From: Panorpa germanica
Lineage: Eukaryota > Arthropoda > Insecta > Mecoptera > Panorpidae
DNA length: 64,000 nt
NCBI GenBank assembly: GCA_963678705.1
Contig: OY783214.1
Span: 14,322,001 to 14,386,000 of the forward strand
Direction: 5' to 3'
Position 1 is the first letter of the stretch. Each line of letters begins with the position of its first letter. The translations under genes and the position numbers were made by a program. The notes below the pieces were generated by a model. That model did not search any database. It was not told the DNA's origin and saw nothing but the letters and a program-made list of their open reading frames with translations. Below, one piece after another: positions 1 through 57,200 of the stretch.

Positions 1-294
1 ATAAAAAAACAGCAAATTTAATTAAGGAATTTAAAGTAAATAGGGTAGACAATAAACAAAAAATGGTTCTATATATGTTGTGTCATTATTATCATAGTAA
101 ACATAGTAAAGTGTGTGTGCGTGTGATGTCATTTACTACCAACAGCTGCATCGTATGAAGTTACAAACTCATAAATAAAATATTGAATTTCTTGTATCTA
201 ATATTTTTATTACATACAGTTTTTAGATAAATATAATAATCAATTAGTAAAATTTATAATATAAAAACTATTTAAAAAATAAATAAAGTAATAT
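1..294. other. 3' flank of the glycosyltransferase-like gene
   Basis: AT-rich. On the minus strand an AATAAA motif lies at about 204-209, roughly 90 bases after the stop, and may end the transcript. No exon carrying the missing C-terminal part of the family is seen here. Confidence 0.5.
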
Positions 295-2911
295 CTAAAC
301 AAGTTTTAAGCCGTGACACTGTTCGACGACTTTTCCTCTGCAGAATGATTGCAAAGCATTCTGAATAATTTCCACAGCAGATTTATAACCTAATTTAGCA
401 CTAAATAAAATTTCCCAGGTTAAAGCGTGACAGGGTTGCCATGCGCTAATAAGAGCTCCGTCATTTCCATGTAACAAAGCTACTTCCGTATGTGTTTCCG
501 GTATAAAAATAAAAGAGTTATTAGTCTTATTGAAAGTTCTTGGTAAGCGATTTTCACTGTTATTTTGAATGCCGTGATTCAAAAAATTTGTTTTAAATGA
601 TTGGAACATATCGTATATTTTGTTTAACCTAGATTCTGTCTTATTTAAAGGAACTATGTTTATTATATGAGTAGTATTTTTTACTGGTAATTCATTGTTA
701 CCAATAGAACGACGTTTAATAGTTTTAGCTTTTATTACAGTTATATTTTCTTCGGTTTTCGTTGCATTCTTTTCAGCATTTGTTTCATTGTTAAAGTTAG
801 AGTCAGTGTTACCCGATTGGTTTATATATAAGTTAATATCTATAGCTGTTCCACCACTATTCCAAACTGCTAAAGCTCTGCAAGCTAGTAGAACACCGGA
901 GTCATCCAATTTCTTCCATGATGTGTATAATATTGATTTTTGAAAGTATTCTTCAATATCAGTGATTATAAATTCGACGTTAGCATGGAGATCGATAATA
1001 TCTTCGTAAATAACATTATCTAAACGTTTTTTTACACTTTTGTGTTTATTTACATAACTTGAAACACTTCCTTTCTTTAAAATAATGATCCGTATAGTTT
1101 TGTTTGGGTACGTATGAGATAGGTTTGCAATAAATTGCAGTTGCAATTCTGTGGTATCGTTTATTATGCAAGTGTGTATTGTAGGTGTTATAGATGTATT
1201 GTCCAGAGCACATTTCCTGTACTGTGTACTTCCGGTAGCAGTGCAAATCAATACCACCACGAAAAGTAACATGCCTGCTCCTATTAAGATTGCTATTTGA
1301 AGACATGTTGTGGCGTGATCTGAAATATAACAATTTATAAAGGGTGAATTTGATGTAGACTAGACGAAAAAATGTTACTTGACATATTATGTTTAATGTC
1401 CTATTTTAATGCTATTAGAATCATAAAATTACCCTATACACATATCGCCTTACAAATAAACCTGTTATAAAATTTATACCAGGTATAAACTGATAATAAG
1501 CCTGTCCGAACGGGCTTTATACCTGATATAAATTTTATAACAGGTTTATTTGTAATGCGAATAAAGTTTTGATATTATGAAGGTCAACCTTAAAAAATGT
1601 GTTCGCTCAAAATGTCAATGTTTTGAGCCAACGTTACCCTCTTTGATTGAAGTTTAATAGTTTATTACTATAAAAGAATATTGTTAAGGAAGGTGCAATC
1701 TACGTCGTTGTTGAATCGCTTTTTCAATATATCAAACCAAACTTAAGTTATATGCAGTTAAAAATTACCTAATTTCAGACTTAATTTTTTAATATTTACA
1801 AAAAAAATATTTTTTTTTTATTTCAACAACCACTTAGTTTTAACCTTTATTTATCATTTTATAAACTTTTTTTCTTCAAATTTTGATTATTGTACTTACA
1901 CGGCATTGGCAGCCAACGCACTTTTTCCACTACAAAAATATTCAGCGATAAATGCCCTAAGATTAAGATAGTTAACAGGCAATAGTGTAGAAAATATTTA
2001 AAATAAACAGAGAGGACCTATACGTTCTGCCACGCTTTTTTAAATTTCTTTTTGTTAATGTAAACATCATTTCAACATTTTTTTATATATATATAATCTC
2101 TAATAAATAAAATAAACTAAAAATATACTATCCCAGTAAACAATTTGGTGAAGTGCCCTATTTAGTGACGTTTCTATCACTATTTCACTTCAATTATAGT
2201 TCGCATCAACTTTAACTTCATTTGTATTCCGACAGGTGGAGTAATTTCGCCATTTCTAGCCGATAAAGTAGACATTTTATATGAAAAATGTGAGAAACTG
2301 AACTATAAATGAACTCTTTAATGACAAAAGAATCATAACGCATCTTCAATATGATGTCAAAGTGACTCCAAAATGTTTACTGGTATGTTATATCTCAGTT
2401 AAGTGCTTGTATAACTGTCTCATTTTTTCTCATACTACGTACGCATAAGTGCTTCTTGCTTACTCATTGACAGATGCTAACAAAATAAATATATAATCCA
2501 AATTACGATAGTTCGGCGGCGACTTATACTTAAAAGAGGTTATAAGAGCGATATAAATCAATAATACGAAAATAAATTTTATCTTATTCGTTTCTATACA
2601 CATTATAGAAATATAAGTGAGTCAGTGCTTTTTAGTTATATCGGCAGTTTATACCCCACAACTTATTTTAAGTATGAGTCGCCGCCGAACTCTCGTAATT
2701 TAAACTATAGCAAGGCAGACTTAACTGCAGCGTGCGCTAAAGGGGTGTCAAGGTTTCTAAAAGTATTTGCAAACTCACCTGGCCAAAGTATTACTACTCT
2801 TGCTACGCCCTTATGAAGACTGCCGTTTCTGCCAATTGCTCTTGACATGTCGAGATTATCTTCTTCAGATTCTTCAACCAAAAGACCACATTTTTCAGAG
2901 TTTTTAACCAT
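295..2911 (-). CDS. Divergent A4GALT-like (GT32 / Gb3-synthase family) type II membrane glycoprotein
   Basis: Two coding exons on the minus strand: 2911-2779 (44 codons plus one base, donor CCAG|gtgagt) and 1319-295 (acceptor atttcag). They join in phase to give 385 aa. The predicted order is an acidic 44-residue cytosolic tail, a membrane anchor at about residues 50-72, then a lumenal part with about 13 N-glycosylation sequons. The stretch at about 108-210 lines up, from memory, with lactosylceramide 4-alpha-galactosyltransferases: a THPESHVLVL-like block reads SHTYPNKTIRIIIL, NVQMLPLDL reads NVEFIITDI, and R-x4-W-x2-GG-x3-DxD reads R192, W197, GG200-201, D205-I-N207. The DxD is therefore DxN, and the usual SD before the arginine is absent. 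About 110 glycosylated, low-complexity residues (about 211-320) separate this from a block resembling the family's NGAFLAF segment. The family's C-terminal part (FYPI, HxW motifs) is absent. The exon structure is well supported. The family call is inference; the protein may be a pseudoenzyme or simply an unrelated secreted protein. Confidence 0.6.
1446..1559. mobile_element. Hairpin MITE (family 3), copy 1, in an intron
   Basis: Left arm 1446-1489 and right arm 1516-1559 are 44-bp inverted repeats with two mismatches around a 26-bp centre containing CTGTCCGAACGGGC. The element is almost entirely stem. It lies in the intron of the glycosyltransferase-like gene. Confidence 0.85.
2132..2384 (+). 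mobile_element. MITE family 2, copy 1 (253 bp)
   Basis: The ends are CCCAGTAAAC and GTTTACTGG; the interior is shared with copies at 34458 and 40767. It lies in the intron of the glycosyltransferase-like gene. Confidence 0.85.
2501..2700. mobile_element. Foldback / MITE with 35-bp G+C-rich terminal repeats
   Basis: Inverted repeats at 2501-2535 and 2666-2700 (centre GTTCGGCGGCGACT) match with two mismatches and enclose about 130 bp of AT-rich sequence. It sits in the intron of the glycosyltransferase-like gene, 79 bp from the exon 1 donor. No second copy is seen in this window. Confidence 0.65.
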
Positions 2912-3354: not shown

Positions 3355-3983
3355 TTGGGCTTGTGTCCTATGTCTTAATTTCTATAAAAGTGTACTATAT
3401 ATTGACAAAGTGGGTTACGAGAACCTACAATGTCCAATTATTTTTTAATAACTCCTTATATGTTAAGAGATATTAACAATTAAAAAAGTCATTTTTTCCC
3501 TTTAATTATTCAAGAAATTCAACGTTGTACACATTCAAAATGCATGTGACATCACAAGCGCTGCCAACCTTACAGCTCATAAATCTCTGCTATATGTATT
3601 TATATATCAATATATCAAATATAATTTACAGCTATTTCAAGGAACAATCAAATTTCAATATTATGTCTGCCGTAACAGGGTTAAATAAAATAAAAACTTA
3701 TTATTCTTTGACTTGACTTGATTATTTCGACTACCAACAGCTGCAAAACATTACCACAGTACTGACCTACTCAACAAATAAGTGACGTTAAAATGCATTT
3801 CACGTCATACAAATATGGTCGACCATTTCTAGCGCTAAAACTACAATTCAAATTTTTAATTGCTATATCTACGTCAATATTTAGATATTTAATAAAATAG
3901 ACACACCAATACACATTTATTAACGTCAATTTCAATCAACAATTGAAAAATCGACCACTAAAAAATGAGGACACAAGCCCATT
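3355..3983 (+). mobile_element. MITE family 1, copy A (~629 bp)
   Basis: The terminal inverted repeat is AATGGGCTTGTGTCCT, with AGGACACAAGCCCATT at the other end. The interior is non-coding and shared with nine other copies here. The first two bases of this copy are changed (TT). It lies 3' of the mucin and 5' of the glycosyltransferase-like gene. Confidence 0.9.
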
Positions 3984-4614
3984 GGTAATGAACTCGTCGT
4001 AATATCATATTACTTGCCTAGGTGTGAGATGGAGAGATATGTGTGTTTAAGGCTGTAACTTCGTGAAGAGGAGGGGTAGGGGGAGGCGTAGAAGAGCAAA
4101 TACCTTCAACACCTCCATTACCCTATAAAGACCATTCAAAACAATTCAAAATTACATCTGGAAGAGCACGGTTCCTTGGAAAGCGAGTTTCCTGAAATAT
4201 TCTGACATAACCGGTAATAAATATTCTCAAAAGAACATATTATGGATAAAACGAATTAAATTTAATAGTGTGATGAGTTTCAAGATTCCAGTAAACTTTT
4301 GGATTTATATTTTTGATATTTTATTAACATTTAGTTATTTTAATCATGCATCCATCTCTGTGTACTGTATTTTTTCTGTTTTAAATATAATTTACAAAAT
4401 TAAAATTTTTATGACTTTTTTTTTTATTATAATAAACAAGCACCCGTAGGTCGTCGCTGCATACGTCTGCCTCCCCGCTTCTATTCTCTTCCACATTTTA
4501 ATCACTTTGTTTACTTTTCTTAAAATAAAATCAATTTTAATGTATTTTTATTTCTGGATTTTATTTTTGTAAACATAAAAGTAAAATATGTATTACGTAT
4601 ATTCAATGGGCTTG

Positions 4615-5235
4615 TGTCCTACGTCTTAATTTCTATAAAACTGTACTATATATTAATAAAGTGGGTTACTAGAACCTCAAATGTTCAATTATTTTTTAAT
4701 AACTCCTTATATGTTAAGAGATATTAACAATTAAAAAAGTCATTTTTTCTTTTTAATTATTAAAGGGATTCAACGTTGTATACATTCCATGTGACATCAC
4801 ATTCCTTGTGTAAGGTTACCAACCTTACAGCTCATAAATCTCTGCTATATGTATTTATATATCAAAATATAAAATATTATTTACAGCTATTTCAAGGAAC
4901 AATAAAATTCCAATATTATGTCTGCCTTAGCAGGGTTAAATAAAATAAAAACTTATTCTTCTTTGACTTGACTTGATTATTTCGACTACCAACAGCTACA
5001 AAACATTACCGCACTGACCTATTCAACAAATAACTGACGTTAAAATGCATTTCACGTCATACAAATATGGCCGACCATTTCTAGCGCTAAAACTACAATT
5101 CAAACTTTTAATTGCTATATCTCCGTCAATATTTAGATATTTAATAAAATAGACACGCCAATACACATTTATTAACGTCAATTTCAATCAACAATTGAAA
5201 AATTGACCATTAAAAAATGAGGACGCAAGCCCATT
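4615..5235 (+). mobile_element. MITE family 1, copy B (~621 bp)
   Basis: Same orientation as copy A, with both terminal repeats present (one GGACGCAAG variant). It is separated from A by 630 bp of unrelated sequence. Confidence 0.9.
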
Positions 5236-5572
5236 ATTAAATAACGTTTATGCAGTATGTAAATCTTAAATACGGTTTGTCTTTTTCTTTTTTTAAATAA
5301 TATTTTTTAATATAAGTTTTTGTAACAAAAATTAAAACTTACTTGATGTTGTAGGTGTATATTCACCGCGTTTGTTTCTTACCGATAAAAAGAAATTATT
5401 CACCTAGCTAACTCGCAGTAATTAATTTTAATAGCCGTAATTTCGTCATCGATATTACGAGAGTGATTTAGATGTTTTATGCTGACATGCAATTACGAAA
5501 AACTGTCGACATTATTATTTAAGTGTTCCAATAAATATTAAGTAGGTTATGTAGATATTTGTGCCGACCCGG

Positions 5573-6112
5573 AATGGGCTTGGGTGCTCATTCTTTAGTG
5601 GTCGATTTTTCAATTGTTGATTGAAATTGATGTTAATAAATGTGTATTCGCGTGTCTATTTTATTAAATATCTAAATATTGACGAAGATATAGCAATTAA
5701 AAGTTTGAATTGTAATTTTAGCGCTAGAAATGGTCGGCCATATTTGTATGACGGAAAATGCATTTTAACGTCAGTTATTTGTTGAGTAGGTCAGTGCTGT
5801 GGTAATGTTTTGTAGCTGTTGGTAGTCGAAATAATCAAGTCAAGTCAAAGAATAATAACTTTTTATTTTATTTAACCCTGCTAAGGCAGACATAATATTG
5901 GAATTTTATTGTTACTTGAAATAGCTGTAAATAATATTTGATATTTTGATATATAAATACATATAGCAGAGATTTATGAGTTGTAAGGTTGGCAGCGGTT
6001 GTGATGTTACATGCATTTGGAATGTGTACAACGTTGAATCCCTTTAATAATTAAAGGGAAAAAATGACTTTTTTAATTGTTAATATCTCCTGAAATATAA
6101 GGAGTTATTTTT
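5573..6112 (-). mobile_element. MITE family 1, copy C, inverted and truncated
   Basis: Inverted relative to A and B. It starts with AATGGGCTTGGGTGCTC and loses similarity near 6112 (GGAGTTATTTTT), so its last ~90 bp, including one terminal repeat, are missing. Confidence 0.85.
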
Positions 6113-7425: not shown

Positions 7426-10400
7426 CTGAAATAAAGAATCTGTTAATGATATATTTATAAATTAACTGTATATTAAGTGCGCTATACTTACCGGAGCATC
7501 TTCATCCGCAAGTTGTCGAATACTTCTTGCACTACCTGTCGAACATGGACTAGTTTCAGATGCTTCCACACACTGAATCCTTTCATTGTCGTATACTGTT
7601 CCATTCGGGCAACTTAAAACAACAATATTAAAGTTCATGCTATTAGGTCTACTACTGCATTGGTAGAAGTTATTGCACTGAGTTGGGTGTCGTCGGAAAC
7701 CTGTTGGACATACGAATACAGATTGTCCTTCTTCCAGATCACCAGGACATGAGGAGTTGCCACTGCTTGGTCGTGATGTTGTAGTGGTAGTTGACGAAGT
7801 GGTTGATTCAGTTTGTGATTGTGTTGTTAATTCAGAATCTGTGGTTGTTGGTGGTTCGGTATTTGGAGTTGTGGGACTGTCGGTTGTAGTTTCCACTACT
7901 TGTGTTGTTGTATCCACTGAACTACTTGTTGTAATGGTGGTAATTTCTGTTGTTGCATCCGTTGTTGTTACTTCTGTTGTAACGGATGTAGGGTCAGTTA
8001 TTGCTGCATTTGTTGTTGTTTCAGTTGGAGCAGGGGATGCAGAATCTGTAGTGGTTTCAGAAATAGCTGTTGTACTATCAGTTGTGACTGTTGTTCCATC
8101 GGATGTAACTGTTGTTCCATCGGATGTAACAGTTGTTCCATCGGTTGTAACTGCAGAAACATCGGTTGTAACTGTTGTGGCTTCTGTTGTTACTGTTGTA
8201 GCTTCAGTTGCGTCTGATGTATTAGGACCCTCTGTAGTTCCCTCTGTTGTAATAGTAGATTCAGTTTGTTCTATGGTTGTTATTTCCGTTTGAGAAGATG
8301 TTGTACTTTCACTTCCTGAAGTAGTTGTTTCACTTATTTCAGTTGTAGAAACTCCATCTGTTGTTGTTGATGAAGATAATGTTGTTCCGCTATCTTCAGT
8401 TGTAGTTTCCGTTGTACTCTCAGTAGCAGTAGTTGTTGTTTCTGTTTTTCCATTTTCTTCTTCTGGTGTTGTAGTAGGTGTTGGTTGAGTTCCAGTACCA
8501 GAGCAATCTCTTGGGGGATAAACAGAATTTTCATGGTTACATGTGTCTAAACTGGGATCCCATATGGTACCTTCTGGACAAGTAAAATGGTAGATAGAGA
8601 ACCGTTCTCCTTTATCTGTATCCCAATCTACACATCTATAATACTTCTTACAATCTGTGGGATTCGAATAAAAACCTGCTTTTGTACAAGTGAAATTTCC
8701 TTTTGGTGTCTCAGTTGTGGAAGAACTACTAGTTGTAGAATCTGGTTCTTTAGGTTGCTCTGATGACGTTTCTTGATTACCACTTGTTGATGTTGCAGAT
8801 GTTGTTTGTGGTGAAGAAGTTGATGAAGATTCTTGTGATGTTGTCGATTCAGTACTTATACTAGTAGAATCAGTGGAGCCGGAAGTCGTAGACGCTTGTG
8901 ATGTAGTTTCTACACTACTTGAAGTTGAAGTTGATTCAGCACTTATACTAGTAGAATCTGTGGAGCCGGAAGTCGTAGATGCTTGTGATGTAGTTTCTAC
9001 ACTACTTGAAGTTGAAGTTGACGACTGTGTAGTAGAAGTCTCTGTTTCATTATTTGAACTAGTTGAACTTGGCGATGATGATGTAGGTTCTGAACTTGGT
9101 GTTGAACTACAGCCTTGTACAAGGTATTCGTGATTACAACCCTGAATTTCATTATCCCAAGCTGTTCCATCCCCACAAGTGAATTCATATCTTGTAAATC
9201 CGCCTTTCCCATTATCAACGCACCTGTAAAACTTTTTGCAATTGTTAGGATCTCCCATAAATCCTTCTTGTTTACATTCTGGTGCGTTAGTTGATGGACC
9301 TGATTCCGGGGTGGCACTTGTTGTAGACGCCGTAGTAGTACTTAACTCTGTGCTAACTGTTGTACTAGATTCAGTTGTACTATTATTTTCAGATTCCTTT
9401 CCGTCTTCAGTTGGTTGAGCTGTACTTGACTGACTTGAGGATTCTGTTGAGGACGCCTCAGTGGAGGACTGTGTTGTAGACGATTCCGTTGATTGTTGAT
9501 TTTCTTGGGTAACTTCATTTCCTCCACTTTCAGTAGTACCTTTGCTACAAGTAGATACAGCATATTCATGATTGCAAGCAAGTATTTCGTTGTCCCACGC
9601 AGTTCCAGGACCGCAATTGAAATCATATTTAGTGAATCCACCTTTACCATTATCAACACATCTGTAAAACTTTTTGCAATTGTTTGGATCACCCATGAAA
9701 CCTTCCTGATTACATTCTGTGCCGACAGGTGATGGAGATGACGTTGTTGCATTTTTGTTACTTTCCTCTGTTGTTTGATTAGAAGATTCTGAACTAGTGC
9801 CGGAATTACTGGATCCTGTAGAAGTAGTTGCACTTTCGGAGGTAGATGTAGATCCTGAAGTTGACGAACCGCTAGAGCTTGTTGAAGTACCTGAACTTTC
9901 AGAACTTGTTGAACTTTCTGATGAAGTACTAGTTTCAGAGCTTGTTGAACTACTCCCCGAATCGGTGGAACTACTGGAGCTGGTAGAACTGCTCGAACTT
10001 GTTGAGCTACTGGAGCTGGTTGAACCACTAGAGCTGGTTGAACTGCTCGAACTTGTTGAACTGTCGGTAGTACCTTGAGCAGATTCTGTAGTTTGAGTCT
10101 GATTTTGATTTGTTGTCGTTTGTTGTTGTGTTGTTGAAGAATTTTCAGAACTTGAAGTGGAGCTGCTTGTAGTTCCGGAACTGGCTGTCTCTGTATTAGT
10201 TGTTGTACTTTCTGATCCTGATGATTGAGTAGAAGTGCTTCCTTGTGATGCATTACCACAAAGTGGAACAGATGCTTCATGGTTACAGCCTTGAATTTCA
10301 TTATCCCAACCCGTTCCTTCACCGCAAGTAAAATCATACTTTGTATAACCTCCTTTACCGTTATCCACACACCTATAAAACTTTTTGCAATTTTCAGGAT

Positions 10401-13400
10401 CGCCCATAAATCCTTCTGTTTTACAAACATTTCCTATCGGAGATGGTTTCGAAGTTGTTGGTGTCTGTGTTGAACTTTGCTCAGTAGTTGGTGCGCCTGT
10501 TGGTGTACTTTCTTGTGAAGAAACCCCTGTTGTGGGTTCGGTTTGTTGCGATGCTGGTGTAGTAGTTTCATATGACGGAACGGTTGTTGTTTCTTGCTGT
10601 TCGGTTACAGTTGTTAAAGGAGAAGATGTCTCTTGCTTGTTTTCAGCTTCAGATGACGATTCAGTTGATTGGTTACTTAATGTTGTTTCTTCTGTACCCT
10701 GTACATTTGATTGTGTTGTCGTTTCTGGTTGACTAGGTGGTTGTGTTATAGGAGTTGTACTTTCAGATCCTTGTGTTTGTGTAGTTGATCCCGAAGATCC
10801 TTGACTGCACCCTGAAACTACTGATTCATGGTTACATCCTTGAATATCATTATCCCATGCTGTTCCATCTCCACAGTTAAAATCATATTTTATAAAACCA
10901 CCACGACCGTTATCAACACATCTGTAGAATTTCTTACAATTATTTGGGTCTCCCATAAAACCTTCTTGCTTACATTCTGTTCCAACAGGTGATGATGTGG
11001 GTGCATTAGTTGTTGTAGGTCCACTTTCTGTGTTGCCTTGCCCTGAACTTGAAGAGGTTGTTCCAGATTGTGATTCTGAACTGGAACTAGACGATTCTGA
11101 AGTATTTGATGATGTTTGTGAGCTTGATCCAGATTGCTCTGTTGACGTAGCACCTGAGCCATTTTGTTCGGAAGTTGATCCTTGCTCAGTCGTCTGTTGA
11201 GAGTTTCCTCCAGTTTCTTGCGATGAAGAATTGCTTTCATTGGTACTGCTAGTTGAAGTTTGTGATCCTGAGCTCTGTCCAGTTGAACTTTCGGCAGTAG
11301 TCGTTTGTGAACTAGAACTGGAACTTTGTGAACCAGAACTCGAACTTTGAGAGCTAGAAGTTTGAGTGCTAGAACCTTCAGATGTAGTAGTTTGAGAAGA
11401 TGTAGAAGATTCTTGTTGATTATTGTTTCCATTAGATGCATTTGAGTTGGAACTGCTAGTACCTGATTCATTCTTGTTATCTGAATTTGCACTACCTGTT
11501 CCACCTGAACCATTAGATGTCTGACTTGATTCTTGATTATTTGTTTGACCTCCTTTTCCGCAACCTTGAACTGCCCATTCATGATTACATCCTTGTATCT
11601 GATCATCCCAAGCGGTTCCTGGTCCGCAACTAAATTCATATCGAGTATAACCACCTTTGCCATTATCAACACATCTATAGAATTTGCTACAGTTGCTTGG
11701 ATCTCCCATGAATCCATCACGCTCACATTTACCATTTGAACCGGCAGGTATAGACGACGCAGTTGTGGTTGATGTACTTTGGTTTTCATTAGATGTTATC
11801 TGATTTTCCTTTTCCTCAGTATCAGGATTTTGGGTTGGAGTTGGACTTACTGATTCATTACCGTTGCTACTACTTTGTGTAGTTCCGCTTTGGCTGCTTT
11901 GAGTTCCTTGGTTGTTTTGGTTTGACTCAGAGCTTTGAGATCCACCACTGGATCCCTGTGAGGAGCTAGTAGTTGATGAAGTTTGTTGATTTGTTTGACT
12001 TGATTGATTGTTACTTCCGCCGGATTGATTTTGATTCGATTGCGTGCTTTGACTTGATTGTGTAGTACTACTTGACTGAGAACTTTGACTTGTTTGTGAG
12101 TTTTGGTTAGATTGAGTACTTTCACTTGTTTGTGTGCTGCTGCTGGATTGGGAACTCTGAGTTGTTTGAGAGGTTTGACCACTTTGAGATGTTCCATTTG
12201 CTTGAGAGTTTTGACTAGTCTGAGATCCTCCATTGGATTGAGAGCTTTGACTACTCTGAGACCCTCCGTTTGATTGAGAACTTTGAGTTGTTTGAGAACT
12301 CTGGCTACTTTGGGATCCTCCGTTTGCTTGAGAACTTTGACTTGTCTGAGAACCTCCATTTGTTTGAGAGGTTTGACCACTTTGTGATCCTCCATTTGCT
12401 TGAGAATTTTGACTAGTCTGAGATCCTCCATTTGTTTGAGAGCTTTGACCACTTTGGGATCCTCCATTTGTTTGAGAACTTTGAGTTGTTTGAGAACTCT
12501 GACTACTTTGAGATCCTCCGTTTGCTTGAGAACTTTGACTAGTCTGCGATCCTCCATTTGTTTGAGAGCTTTGACCACTTTGGGATCCTCCATTTGTTTG
12601 AGAACTTTGACCACTCTGAGATCCTCCACTAGATTGAGAACTTTGACCACTCTGAGATCCTTCATTAGATTGAGATCCTCCACTAGATTGAGAATTTTGA
12701 CTTGTTTGAGAGTTTCCACCGGACTGAGTATTTTGGTTAGACTGTGAGTTGCTACTCGATTGAGAGTTCTCATTTGTTTGAGTACTTTGAGTTGACTGAC
12801 TGCCTGTTTGTGAAGACGATCCACTGTTACTAGCTTGAGATGATTGACTCGATTCTGAACTACCTCCAGATTGTGATCCTTGGCTATTTGATCCACCAGA
12901 AACTGATCCACCTTTACCGCATCCAGGCACAGCCCATAAGTGGTTACATCCTTGAATTCTATCATCCCATGCCGTATTTTCTGCGCAGCTGAACTGATAC
13001 TTGGTGTAGCCTCCTCTTCCATTGTCAACACATCTATAAAACTTCTTGCAGTCTGCTGGATCTCCAATAAATCCATCGGTCGTGCATTGCACTGTTTGGC
13101 CAGGTGCTAGAGGTTTCTTTGTTGTTGGCGGTATAGTAGAAGTTGTTACTGTGGTCTGGGAAGTAGTTGTTGAAACTTTGGTTGTAGTTTGAGGTGCACC
13201 TGTTGTAGTGCTTGTAATAGGCTCCTGTCTACTAGTTGTACTTTGCACGGAGGCAGAAGGTGGTTTATTATCAAAACTACTGTCGATTTCATTCTGTTTG
13301 CCTCCACATTGTTTTCTACCGGAATCTGTTGGATGCACACATACATCCAGACCAGGAGAGAATACCGTTCCAGGACCGCATTGGAATCTATAAGGAGTTA

Positions 13401-16400
13401 ATTTGTCCCCCCATGCTACACATCGGTGGAATACAGCGCAGTCATTCGGATCAGGATGAAAGCCTTCGCTTGGACATTTGAACACCGATCCTTGTCGAGA
13501 TATTCTTCTGCGGGAATGCACTGCAAATAATAATAGCAGTATTTAGCTAATAATCGAAACAAATATTATTATCATACTCGTATTATTATAAATAAAATAT
13601 TTGTTATTTTATAAGATATGCGAAAATAACAGACATGTTTCAACACAAATATTTATTTAATTATAAACACATGTTCTGTAGTATTTGAGTAGAAATATTT
13701 CTATTCGTATTATAATTTAGTTTACTCGTTTCTACAACTGAAATGGCATTTGTTTGTTTGCTTGTAACCTTTGGTGACCTTTAACAGTATGCGAACACCT
13801 ACTTCCTACCGCATTTATTGTAACCCAGGTTTATTTCTGAATCTACAGCGTTCTTTGTAAGTTGATTGAAAAAACAATTATTTATGAGATAACTGGTATA
13901 ATACGTGTTATTATTGTTGCGTTGAACAGGCGCTTCAGATACTAAATTTATTTTTAAATACAGTTTACACTACTTTTGTAAATAGCCTATTTTCTTTGTG
14001 TGCAGGGAGAGATGACATCTTCCTCCCGTTTCCTTTATTTTCCACGTTTTACTAAACCGTTATTTAATAATGCTTACACGGGTATTGTTTGCTTGTCGAC
14101 CCTTACTATGATACGTGCAACACCCGTGTAAAACAAAGGCGCCACTTTGATCTACAGATAGATGAAGCACAAAATGAAAACGGACGTATGAAGTAAAGGT
14201 TATTATTGACGAGGTATTGATAAACTTAAATTAAGTAAAAACTTAATTGATAAAATATTTTTCTTAGATTAACTGCTGAAAAATTGGGCCGGTAGTTGTG
14301 ATAGTCGAGGCCGCAATCTAATCTTGGAGTAAAAATTACTAAATTCTACGTTAATTCTTCTTTGTATGTGTCGTTAATTTTATAACCGTATTTTTACGTT
14401 CATCGAATGTTCATTCACTCAGCGATACAAACGGCTTGTAACCTTGAACGAGGACCCAGCATCTCGTAGCCAAAGTTGTCGTAGGTTAGTATTGACTGTA
14501 GTGTTGTAGTATAGTCAGGTGAGACTAGTGTAAGAGTGACTGTGGGAGAGTTCTAACAAAACACACTTGCGCAGGCGCATGGGCATACAATACCAGTCAA
14601 CGATACTGAACACTGAACAACCGATCTATCGGACACTGACCACAGCCTCTGACGCAATGGTAAGGTCGCTGCTATTATAATATACACATACTATACAACA
14701 TAGAATCGATATTTATTCTCATAGTAATAAATATAAAAGTTTTATTGAATAAATTATAATACATTTGTCTGCTTTTTATGATAGTTACTTGTGGGAAAGT
14801 TTTATAGATAAGTTTTTTTTTGCAAAAAGTTTTTACAAATTTGAGAAGAAGTGTTTGGATGAGCCTTATTGAGATAACATTTTATATTTATTTGTGTAAT
14901 GTAAGGCTGGGTTTACACGACATTATACTGCACGTTATTTACAGTATTCGATCATAAACGTATATGGCAAGATAAATGTACTAAAATGAAATTTGCTATA
15001 TGTTTAAACTAAGTAAATAAATAAAAAAACACTGTTTAATATAGGTATTATTTAAGTTTTATTAATTACATTTATTTGAATAGGACAAATCAATAGAGTA
15101 CGGACTTTGAAGCGAAGGTAGCCAAATTATTGTTGATTTGGAATTTTTGAGTAAAATATTGTCTGTGACGCCGCTTGAGTTGCAACGCGATTTTTATATA
15201 ATTCTATAGTTTTATCCCACATCATTATATAAAATAATAAATGAATATCTGTAAAAGATTCATCAAACATTTTCTAATAATAATCTGGAAACACGTGCAA
15301 ATGATACTTCAGCACTAAACACTTGTTCGGTTACTATTCGATAAAAGTCACGCCGTGTAAAAGATGCCGTATGTGCCACTGCAAGTCGAATACGTTAAAG
15401 TTCATTCGATTTGCTTGACAAGTCCGGTGAGTGTTCGATAAACGTGTTTAGCTTTGTACGTTTTTTTGCAGTACAAACGTCGTGTGGATGATTCTGTATA
15501 AAATATATGCGCCACTGTTTATTCGATAAGTGTTATACTGCAAAAAAACGTGCAGTACAGTGGTCTTGTATATGAAGGCGCGTGTGTGGAATCCGTATCC
15601 GTTTAGTGTCGGTAAATACAATAGATAAAAGCGTTCAAATGTGTGCTTAGGCCATATTGGAGGTGCTGTCCGCACAAGTGTTCACAACAGCGTTTGAAAC
15701 GTATTTAATTACACAAAGTTAATAAGCAACTACATCGTTAAATTACTTTAAATTGTATTTTACGTATTTTGATCTTTCAATAATTGCGTGTAGATAGTTA
15801 AAGCAACTCGTTAATATCATGGAAAACATTAACAAGAGTCAATTAGAATCGTGAGCTCCAACAGCGGTCGTACACTGTGTTTACGCTTTTTTCTAAAACT
15901 ACTTTCATTATTAAAGGATTAGAAAAAATCAATTTTATGTTAGTTCTACACCACGGACTATTGACGTCTCCCTTCTACAATAGAGATGATATTAAAAGAA
16001 GATGAAAGAAAAAGAAATGAAAGATTTGTACGGTTCAACTTTTCTTTTAACATGAGTTACAATCTTTTATAAATTGAACTATAGTTACATTTTGTACCTA
16101 ACTAAAAAAAGGATATTGAAAATTGCTTTAGGTAAAACAGGTTTTCACAACAACCAGGATAATTTATCAATTATCAAATGGTACATTATTTATCTCGCAA
16201 CAATTACGTAATTATTAGCTACTAAACGTCGGATAATAGCTAAAAATAAAGTAATAACTATAAAAATAAAGTTCTCGTTAAAGTTAGTGTAAAGGAATTC
16301 CTATCTTTACAAGATTCGCTCTTAGATTCTCTGGACCGTGGTCAATGACTGTTGAAATGGAATCTAGTTCATAAAGAGTATTCAAAGCACTTGTTTTCAA

Positions 16401-54297: not shown

Positions 54298-57200
54298 ATG
54301 GCTGGACATAATCTTGTTGAAATTACTGATCAACATTTTTTTTATGAAGATGAAATATTTCGGATTAATAAAAAAGGTAAAGTTAGTTTTGGGATGGTGA
54401 TGGAAAATTACGAAGCTAGTTCTAGTGATCAAGATTCTGATAATGGAACACCAAGTATTACCCCAATCGCAAAAGGCGAACTTAGAGTCGCATGGCATCC
54501 TACCGGCAGGGAAGAAGTAATAAAGGATTCCACGGCAAGTACAATTTTGCAAATTTTTTAGTTGATATAATATAAAACGCGTCATAAAACATCACTTTAT
54601 TCTATTACAATATTACTCTTAGTAAATTTGAACTTTTAAGATACTCCATAATACTTTAATCATGAATTAAATAATAATAATTTCCGACCAAATAATAGTA
54701 CTAGCAATACCTGTGTTAATGACATATTAAGAACTGTCTAGAATTGTTTCTATTTTTAAATAATGCTCCTAGCCTAATTTACTATACTGCTTTCACTTGT
54801 TCTGCAGACAATAAATTATATTTCTAATAAAAAGAATAATCAGAATATAAGGGTACTTCTTAAGAACGTGATGTAACTATTCATACTTACAGGTTGGATT
54901 GGCAGATAGATCACTAATGCCTGGTGACGTTGTTAGACGAATGATACCAGGAAAAGATACTCAAAGGGGATATTGCAGAGATATAAATGTCAGAGCAGCT
55001 GTGAAAGTTAATGGCACACACTTTGTAATTCCACAAGTTACATCGGAACGTTTAAAGCCCTTGGAACAGTTTACACCAGATTTGGCTGTCTGTTTAGATT
55101 CATGGGTAATATTTATTCCAAGTAACACGAAAGTAACATATACGTAAAGAATACATAATGTATTCTACTTTTGTTCTTTCAATTTAATAGGTGGGTAGTA
55201 CACGTGTAGTAAATAGTAAAATGATTCTTGAATCCGCCGATGGTTCAAGACTTGCTTGGAAAGATCTGGATTCTTGTCCATTTGAAGATTATCAACAATC
55301 GAAAGGAAAGTTTGATAATGCAATAGGTTCTATATTCTACCCTGGACAAACTGTTGTCTCTACTTTGGGTGCATTGGATAGTGCTGATTGGATAAATATT
55401 TCAAAAGAAATGACTTTATTACGAAAACATAAAAACAAGGACCACAAGGTGATTAATTGAAATTTTCAAAATGAGAAAATGTTTAGCTTTTAGATGAGAC
55501 AAATTTGGTGAAATATTAATGGTGTGATTTAATAGTAATAGTTGTATAATTTTTGTTTTAGTTTGTTGTGCTCTCTATAGACATAGAAAGTGTAGTTGTA
55601 CATTGGCAATGTCGAGCTCTTAGTCATGAAAACGAAGGGGGTCATGAAGGTACGCATATTCAACCGAAATCGTTAATTGAAGGTGATGATCTCAAACGAC
55701 TGCAACTTTTAAATCGATTTGAGCCCTGTACTTTGCAAGTTAGCGATAGAAACTACTTAACTATAACGGATAGTGATACAATTTTGCACGCAAAAGAATG
55801 GAGAAAACAACAAAGTAAGTCAATTCTAATCCTACTAAAACTATGTACCAATGCATATATATGTATATCGAGAAAAATATTTATGTTTGATTGTTTAGGT
55901 TGTGAATATCGTTCGTTACTAAAATCTTGTTTAAGCAATAGTTTTCTAAAGGATGATGTTCCACAAAATAAGACTTCAAATACTTCAAGTGACGTTTCAA
56001 CGAATACAGAGTCTAAACTAAAATTGCAATTAATGAAAAATTCAAAAGATATTACTGCTAATAGTAATGTTCCTCCATCTGAAGAACGAGAGGAAGACTG
56101 GCAGTCAGATAGCAGCTCGGGAAGTACAACTACACATTCGTCGTGCAGAAGTAGCGATTCTTCTAGAACTGTTTATTCCAAACCTCCAGTTTTAGTTACT
56201 AAATTATTGAAAGGAAAAAAATTGAAACGCACTAGACGAAATTTTATAACTACTGTACCAACTGCACCAAAACCTGGCGATAGGATTGTTGTAGAAACAT
56301 TATCAACACATAGTACTGCGAATGTTGTGTGGCAAGATGGCCAAGTGGAATGTAATATACCATCCATCGATTTGTATCCCATTCATCATTTGGATGATCA
56401 AGAGTTTTTTCCTGGAGATTTTGTAATATCTGGAGCTGAAGGCGTAGGATCTCCATCGCTAAGAGATTATGGTGTGGTACAATCAATGAATCATCAGGGC
56501 CGCACGGCTGTTGTCAAATGGTTTAGAACTTATACCAGCAGTGATGAACCACGGTAAGTCGAGTACTTAATAAACTCTTAAGAATAAACCGTATTACTAA
56601 GACTAATTATACAAACTTTATTTTTACTGTTTAGGCCAGCTCTAATTGCTGAAACTGAAGTCAGTGTATACGATTTAAAAGATCATCCTGATTTCCAATA
56701 TCGACCAGCAACCGTTGTTATTAGAGTAGCTAATTTTGTTGGGGAGGATTCAGCTTGCACAGCGGGCCAAGTACGTATTAATGAGAGGAAAACGAAATTA
56801 ATATTTAGCTACATAATAATGAATTTTAACCGTCGTTTTAGGTTATTGATAACTTTCCAGAAGGTAAAGTAAGAGTTTGGTGGGTAGATGGGCATTCAAG
56901 TATGTGCTGGCCACAAGATTTGTTTAAGGTATGAAGAATATGCATAGAAAATAATAATAAGTTTAATAAGAAAGTGTTTAATATAAAATTTTGACTGTAG
57001 ATAGGAGAATACGATTCTGATGATGGTGATTTCTGGGCGGACAATTCTTCAGAAAATGATTCATGGGAAACTCAAAGTATAGAAAGTGTGGATCCTGCTT
57101 CTCCCGGGGCTCCTCCAGAACTAAAGCCTAAATTAGCTGCTAATGTGGAGCGTGCTAGAAGAGCTATGGCTCGTTTAGAGGAAATATTTACGCAAAATCC

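What the first reader, a model, noticed from the sequence alone, without database searches (positions are those of the whole stretch)
295..2911. A4GALT-like protein with a degenerate DxD and a glycosylated insertion: possible pseudoenzyme
The spliced 385-aa product keeps the topology and several blocks of the GT32 Gb3-synthase branch (type II anchor, NVEFIITDI block, R-x4-W-x2-GG-x3-D). The metal-binding DxD reads D205-I-N207, and the preceding Ser-Asp is gone. About 110 residues dense in N-glycosylation sites are inserted, and the C-terminal motifs are missing. The conserved reading frame argues for a retained non-catalytic or re-purposed Golgi/extracellular role rather than decay.
Basis: partly seen in the sequence, partly recalled or inferred. 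Interest (0 to 1): 0.7.

Follow-up and report, generated by a model that had tools for sequence, protein, structure and literature searches.

The report
Possible inactive sugar-transferase relative, unproven
An intact insect-like gene makes a membrane protein rich in sugar-attachment sites that faintly resembles a sugar-adding enzyme lacking key active-site parts, but the family link could not be proven.

Summary
The minus strand carries a clean two-exon gene (2911-2779 and 1319-298, stop 297-295) for a 385-aa single-pass membrane protein with D205-I-N207, about 100 surplus Asn-rich residues and no tail after CHGLKLV. Sequons after the anchor are enriched: 13 against 5.2 expected, reached in 4 of 10,000 shuffles, which favours a real secretory glycoprotein over a decaying frame.

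Pfam gives no hit for the exon-2 protein, four fragments or a version without the Asn-rich stretch; recalled human A4GALT and another GT32-like exon of this genome do ring. Against human A4GALT/A4GNT alone the similarity is marginal: 10 of 1000 shuffles equal the DxD block, and another frame scores higher. Two single-sequence models were too poor to show a fold. The gene looks single-copy; no canonical Gb3-synthase gene was found, but that absence is soft.

Best reading, about 45%: a strongly diverged, probably non-catalytic A4GALT-like glycoprotein. It fails the GT32 membership tests.

The parts
2779..2911 (-). Exon 1 (133 coding bases): first in-frame ATG and a predicted cytoplasmic tail of about 50 residues (completed by exon 2)
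   Evidence: First ATG of the open frame 2947-2705; donor CAG|GTGAGT
1320..2778 (-). Phase-1 intron, 1459 bases, GC 0.29, holding two hairpin-like inverted repeats
   Evidence: GT-AG ends; repeats
298..1319 (-). Exon 2: membrane anchor and the whole lumenal part; stop codon at 295-297
   Evidence: 354-codon open frame 295-1359; spliced translation
1237..1302 (-). Predicted transmembrane anchor, about residues 51-72
   Evidence: 19-residue hydropathy peak 2.9 starting at residue 53; highest in windows starting after residue 80 is 1.18
817..894 (-). Block resembling the GT32 R-x4-W-x2-GG-x3-DxD region (residues 187-212), with D205-I-N207
   Evidence: marginal, 10 of 1000 shuffles as good
514..810 (-). 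Asn/Thr-rich stretch with 8 sequons (residues 215-313, edges arbitrary)
   Evidence: 92 of 10,000 shuffles reach 8
298..468 (-). C-terminal part (about residues 329-385), faintly like the Gb3_synth region; lacks WGxxGP, FYPI and HxWN
   Evidence: its best local alignment lies in the expected place for A4GNT and the typed consensus, not for A4GALT; -1.1 bits with the profile; no tail found 3' of the stop
206..211 (-). Possible polyadenylation signal AATAAA

Best explanation
An intact, apparently single-copy gene for a type II membrane protein of the secretory pathway, rich in N-glycosylation sites. It most likely descends from the A4GALT/alpha4GT (GT32) branch and no longer transfers sugar. Inferred mechanism: the lumenal domain keeps a degraded nucleotide-sugar-binding core without the metal site (D-I-N for D-x-D, no Ser-Asp, no WGxxGP, no C-terminal HxWN) and acts as a partner or stabiliser of other Golgi glycosyltransferases, as human A4GALT pairs with B4GALT5. 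Shown: gene structure, hydrophobic anchor, sequon enrichment, no second copy found. Inferred: topology, descent, fold, loss of catalysis, Golgi location and any partner.
For: Clean splice sites and a 385-aa frame; shuffled exon 2 reaches at most 170 codons in 2000 shuffles. Sequons after the anchor 13 against 5.2 expected, 4 of 10,000 shuffles. The same register around R192...W197..GG...D205-x-N207 is chosen by the three-row profile, by hhalign (P 0.0063, probability 5.9%), by local alignment of the N-part to A4GALT, A4GNT and the typed consensus and by a recalled lepidopteran-type sequence with phmmer. With the three-row profile, which includes my typed consensus, the window frame ranks 1 of 2550 frames, though only at E 0.2. 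The human DxD is described as indispensable, and heterodimers with B4GALT1 and B4GALT5 are reported (passages of PMC11546571).
Against: No Pfam match at E up to 10, while controls ring. With a profile of the two human proteins alone the insert-free part scores 1.6 bits (full 0.9, N-part 2.9) against a top shuffle of 8.3, and the frame is not among the 10 best printed of 2550 frames. Lumenal local alignments were equalled by 18 of 1000 (A4GALT) and 73 of 1000 (A4GNT) shuffles; N-part 22 and 173; C-part 55 and 25. The C-part's best alignment to A4GALT falls in the wrong region. Glocal alignments were equalled by 33 and 30 of 1000. Block: 10 of 1000 shuffles, and one other frame of 1892 scores higher. 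BLASTP of the recalled lepidopteran-type sequence found nothing meaningful (best E 5.5, not at the block). No paralogue or orthologue and no usable fold.
Confidence: 0.45

Rival explanations
1. A lineage-specific secretory glycoprotein unrelated to glycosyltransferases; the R-x4-W-x2-GG-x3-D block and the weak C-terminal similarity are chance.
For: Pfam empty; human-only tests marginal or null; another frame of the window scores as well on the block.
Against: The same block register recurs with several references; the C-part's best local alignment falls in the expected region for 2 of 3 references (A4GNT and my typed consensus); one anchor near the N-terminus.
Confidence: 0.37
2. A decaying A4GALT-family gene: loss of the C-terminus and active site, still open by chance, on its way to a pseudogene.
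For: Missing motifs; no canonical copy found in the genome; no tail seen 3' of the stop.
Against: 385 codons without a stop and good splice sites; sequon enrichment.
Confidence: 0.1
3. A still active, highly diverged GT32 that uses D-x-N or another metal site.
For: The GG and the first Asp of the motif are kept.
Against: Several other family motifs are missing as well (in the accepted alignment); the human enzyme needs its DxD (passage of PMC11546571).
Confidence: 0.08

Closest known systems
A4GALT / insect alpha4GT1 and alpha4GT2 (GT32; Pfam Gly_transf_sug PF04488 + Gb3_synth PF04572)
   Same: One anchor near the N-terminus; faint blocks, R-x4-W-x2-GG-x3-D
   Different: No Pfam match; D-I-N for DxD; no Ser-Asp, WGxxGP, FYPI or HxWN; about 100 extra Asn-rich residues; 13 sequons after the anchor against two in the human enzyme (passage of PMC11546571)
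GT32-like exon at G000:C17:2271113-2271403 (L004:1393-1683) of the same genome
   Same: Same genome; S-D-x2-R-x7-GG around its acidic motif, where the window protein has R-x7-GG without the S-D
   Different: Matches PF04488 over its cut-off (24.5 bits, E 4.5e-5); motif GGLFLEND; no link to the window protein was shown
Cosmc and similar non-catalytic glycosyltransferase relatives (recalled; Cosmc was seen only in a reference title)
   Same: Would work alike: an inactive lumenal relative that aids an active enzyme
   Different: Another glycosyltransferase family (recalled); no partner is known here

Membership tests
GT32 / A4GALT | Match to Pfam Gly_transf_sug (PF04488) | tested here: not met
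   0 families at E up to 10 for the exon-2 protein, three window fragments and a version without the Asn-rich stretch and a 41-aa block; controls ring. HMMER's filters can hide weak matches.
GT32 / A4GALT | Match to Pfam Gb3_synth (PF04572) | tested here: not met
   control recalled human A4GALT 2.8e-39
GT32 / A4GALT | DxD metal motif | tested here: not met
   D205-I-N207
GT32 / A4GALT | Significant sequence similarity to known members | tested here: inconclusive
   Marginal or null with human sequences only; weak with a set that holds my typed consensus and with a recalled sequence
   Absent from the product (read by eye); C-terminal profile found nothing better than E 2.3 in 204 minus-strand frames of the adjacent 6.4 kb
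GT32 / A4GALT | GT-A fold | tested here: inconclusive
   Single-sequence models, mean pLDDT 36.8 and 50.4; too poor, so no fold search was made
Type II secretory-pathway membrane protein | Single anchor near the N-terminus, with the part after it in the lumen | tested here: met
   Anchor: one hydropathy peak. Lumenal side: inferred from sequon enrichment. Golgi location not tested.
Retained pseudoenzyme | Orthologues share the loss and evolve under constraint | not testable with these tools
   The window's assembly has no relatives here (note); scans of viral and prokaryote contigs confirmed no relative

The most novel reading that the evidence does not exclude
This lineage has lost every canonical alpha4GT gene and kept only this single-copy, catalytically dead derivative, rich in N-glycosylation sites, as a non-enzymatic Golgi or surface protein.
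Probability: 0.15. Interest if true: 0.6.

Novelty: new variant of a known kind. Interest (0 to 1): 0.3.

Why it matters
If orthologues confirm the descent, it would be an A4GALT-family pseudoenzyme in an insect in which no active family member was found, a natural test of what the family does without catalysis. As it stands it is an intact orphan-like glycoprotein gene with a plausible but unproven ancestry.

Tried and rejected
Pfam on the exon-2 protein, three fragments, a version without the Asn-rich stretch and a 41-aa block: empty. Solved-structure search: one chance-level hit, an mRNA-capping enzyme, E 1.8. Viral and prokaryote contig scans: 12 and 39 stretches matched a peptide pattern, none confirmed. 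Own-genome searches for paralogues by protein and by DNA: only the gene itself.

Own-genome searches for canonical members: families PF04488 and PF04572, four protein queries and three motif patterns. One real GT32-like exon, L004, came and was confirmed; it scored 20.9 bits against 8.5 for the window gene. The other hits, L005-L007, scored at chance with the local profile. The Galactosyl_T control gave 76 matches. But the PF04488 family search gave no match and so missed L004, and introns could split the motifs, so the absence of canonical members is not firm.

Two structure jobs gave models too poor to search; no fold search was run. Literature: in six searches I saw only listings (10 of 31,990 papers; 1 of 1; 10 of 10; 10 of 17,614; 0; 10 of 19); nothing listed describes such a lepidopteran protein. 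I saw passages only of PMC10337751, PMC10702092, PMC11160473, PMC6154994 and PMC11546571.

Full report
Gene model. On the minus strand, exon 1 (2911-2779) starts with ATG and ends at a strong donor; a 1459-base GT-AG intron follows (2778-1320). Exon 2 (1319-298) ends with a stop at 297-295, and an AATAAA lies at 211-206. Over 2000 base shuffles of exon 2 the longest frame in six frames was 170 codons, against about 341 in the gene. GC by codon position falls 0.40, 0.35, 0.27; the intron is 0.29.

Protein anatomy. A tail of about 50 residues precedes one hydrophobic segment (19-residue peak 2.9 from residue 53; highest in windows starting after residue 80 is 1.18). The 313 residues from 73 on hold 13 N-x-S/T sites where shuffles average 5.2 (4 of 10,000 reach 13), and the Asn-rich stretch 215-313 holds 8 where shuffles average 3.7 (92 of 10,000). 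I take this as the strongest sign that the protein is made and has its C-terminal part in the lumen; use of the sites is inferred.

Is it a GT32? Pfam reports nothing for the exon-2 protein, four fragments or a version without the Asn-rich stretch. The same kind of scan gives recalled human A4GALT E 2.8e-39 for Gb3_synth, a recalled lepidopteran-type sequence 5.9e-29, and the own-genome exon L004 4.5e-5 for Gly_transf_sug. Local alignment of the part after the anchor was equalled by 18 of 1000 shuffles for A4GALT, 73 for A4GNT and 0 for my typed insect-like consensus; for the N-part 22, 173 and 0; for the C-part 55, 25 and 11. The C-part's best alignment lies in the expected region for A4GNT and the consensus but not for A4GALT. 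A profile of all three scored the insert-free part at 8.6 bits against a top of 8.3 in 2000 shuffles (1588 reported), and the window frame ranked 1 of 2550 frames at E 0.2. A profile of the two human proteins alone gave 1.6 bits for the insert-free part and 0.9 for the full protein, against a top shuffle of 8.3, and the frame was not among the 10 printed. The 24-residue DxD block was equalled in 10 of 1000 shuffles, and the window frame came second of 1892 frames. Glocal alignments were equalled by 33 (A4GALT) and 30 (A4GNT) of 1000. hhalign gave P 0.0063 and probability 5.9%. The recalled lepidopteran-type sequence ranked the frame first of 2550 but at E 1.4, and BLASTP with it found nothing meaningful. 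Because I wrote the consensus, and recalled that sequence, after reading the window, the human-only tests are the fair ones, and they are marginal to null.

Fold. Two AlphaFold2 runs without relatives gave mean pLDDT 36.8 (exon 2) and 50.4 (137 residues around the block), so the fold remains untested.

Genome context. The window lies at G000:C11:14322001-14386000 of a 464-Mb assembly of 249 contigs. From contig sizes and gene content I take it to be an insect, probably a moth or butterfly; this is inference. Protein and DNA searches found only this copy. Two families, four protein queries and three motif patterns found no canonical Gb3-synthase gene. The Galactosyl_T control gave 76 matches, but the PF04488 search missed the real GT32-like exon L004, so absence is not shown. 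No remnant of the missing C-terminal tail was seen in 204 minus-strand frames of the adjacent 6.4 kb (best E 2.3).

Reading. If the family link is right, the protein lacks the DxD, the Ser-Asp, WGxxGP and the HxWN region and should not transfer sugar; a review calls the human DxD indispensable and reports heterodimers with B4GALT1 and B4GALT5 (passages of PMC11546571). A helper or scaffold role is then the most likely. The chance that the link is right is near one half to 0.6, summed over my readings that assume it. It should not be filed as a GT32 member: tested defining features were not met.

Corrections made on re-checking: coordinates of the anchor, the block, the Asn-rich stretch and the C-terminal part; the colinearity argument, which a glocal alignment cannot support, was replaced by the local results; omitted negative results were added.

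Noticed in passing
window 7465-13542 (-): A 2026-codon open frame with nine matched peritrophin-A chitin-binding stretches separated by Ser/Thr/Gln-rich, mucin-like linkers, on the same strand as the gene.
   Followed up: partly
window 3356-6109: Three copies of a roughly 540-640-base repeat, two direct (90-95% identical in pieces) and one inverted (94%), just upstream of the gene.
   Followed up: no
window 1445-1560 and 2492-2709: Two hairpin-like inverted repeats inside the intron (arms 45 and 50 bases, 96% and 86% complementary), possibly MITE-like.
   Followed up: no
L004:1393-1683 (G000:C17): A GT32-like exon with GGLFLEND in place of GGxYxDxD, matching PF04488 over its cut-off.
   Followed up: partly
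window 55562-56554 (+): Frame with UBE2O SH3-B domain matches.
   Followed up: no
G000:C10:10703164-10739933: Cluster of seven near-full-length and two partial Galactosyl_T matches, all on one strand, seen in a control search.
   Followed up: no
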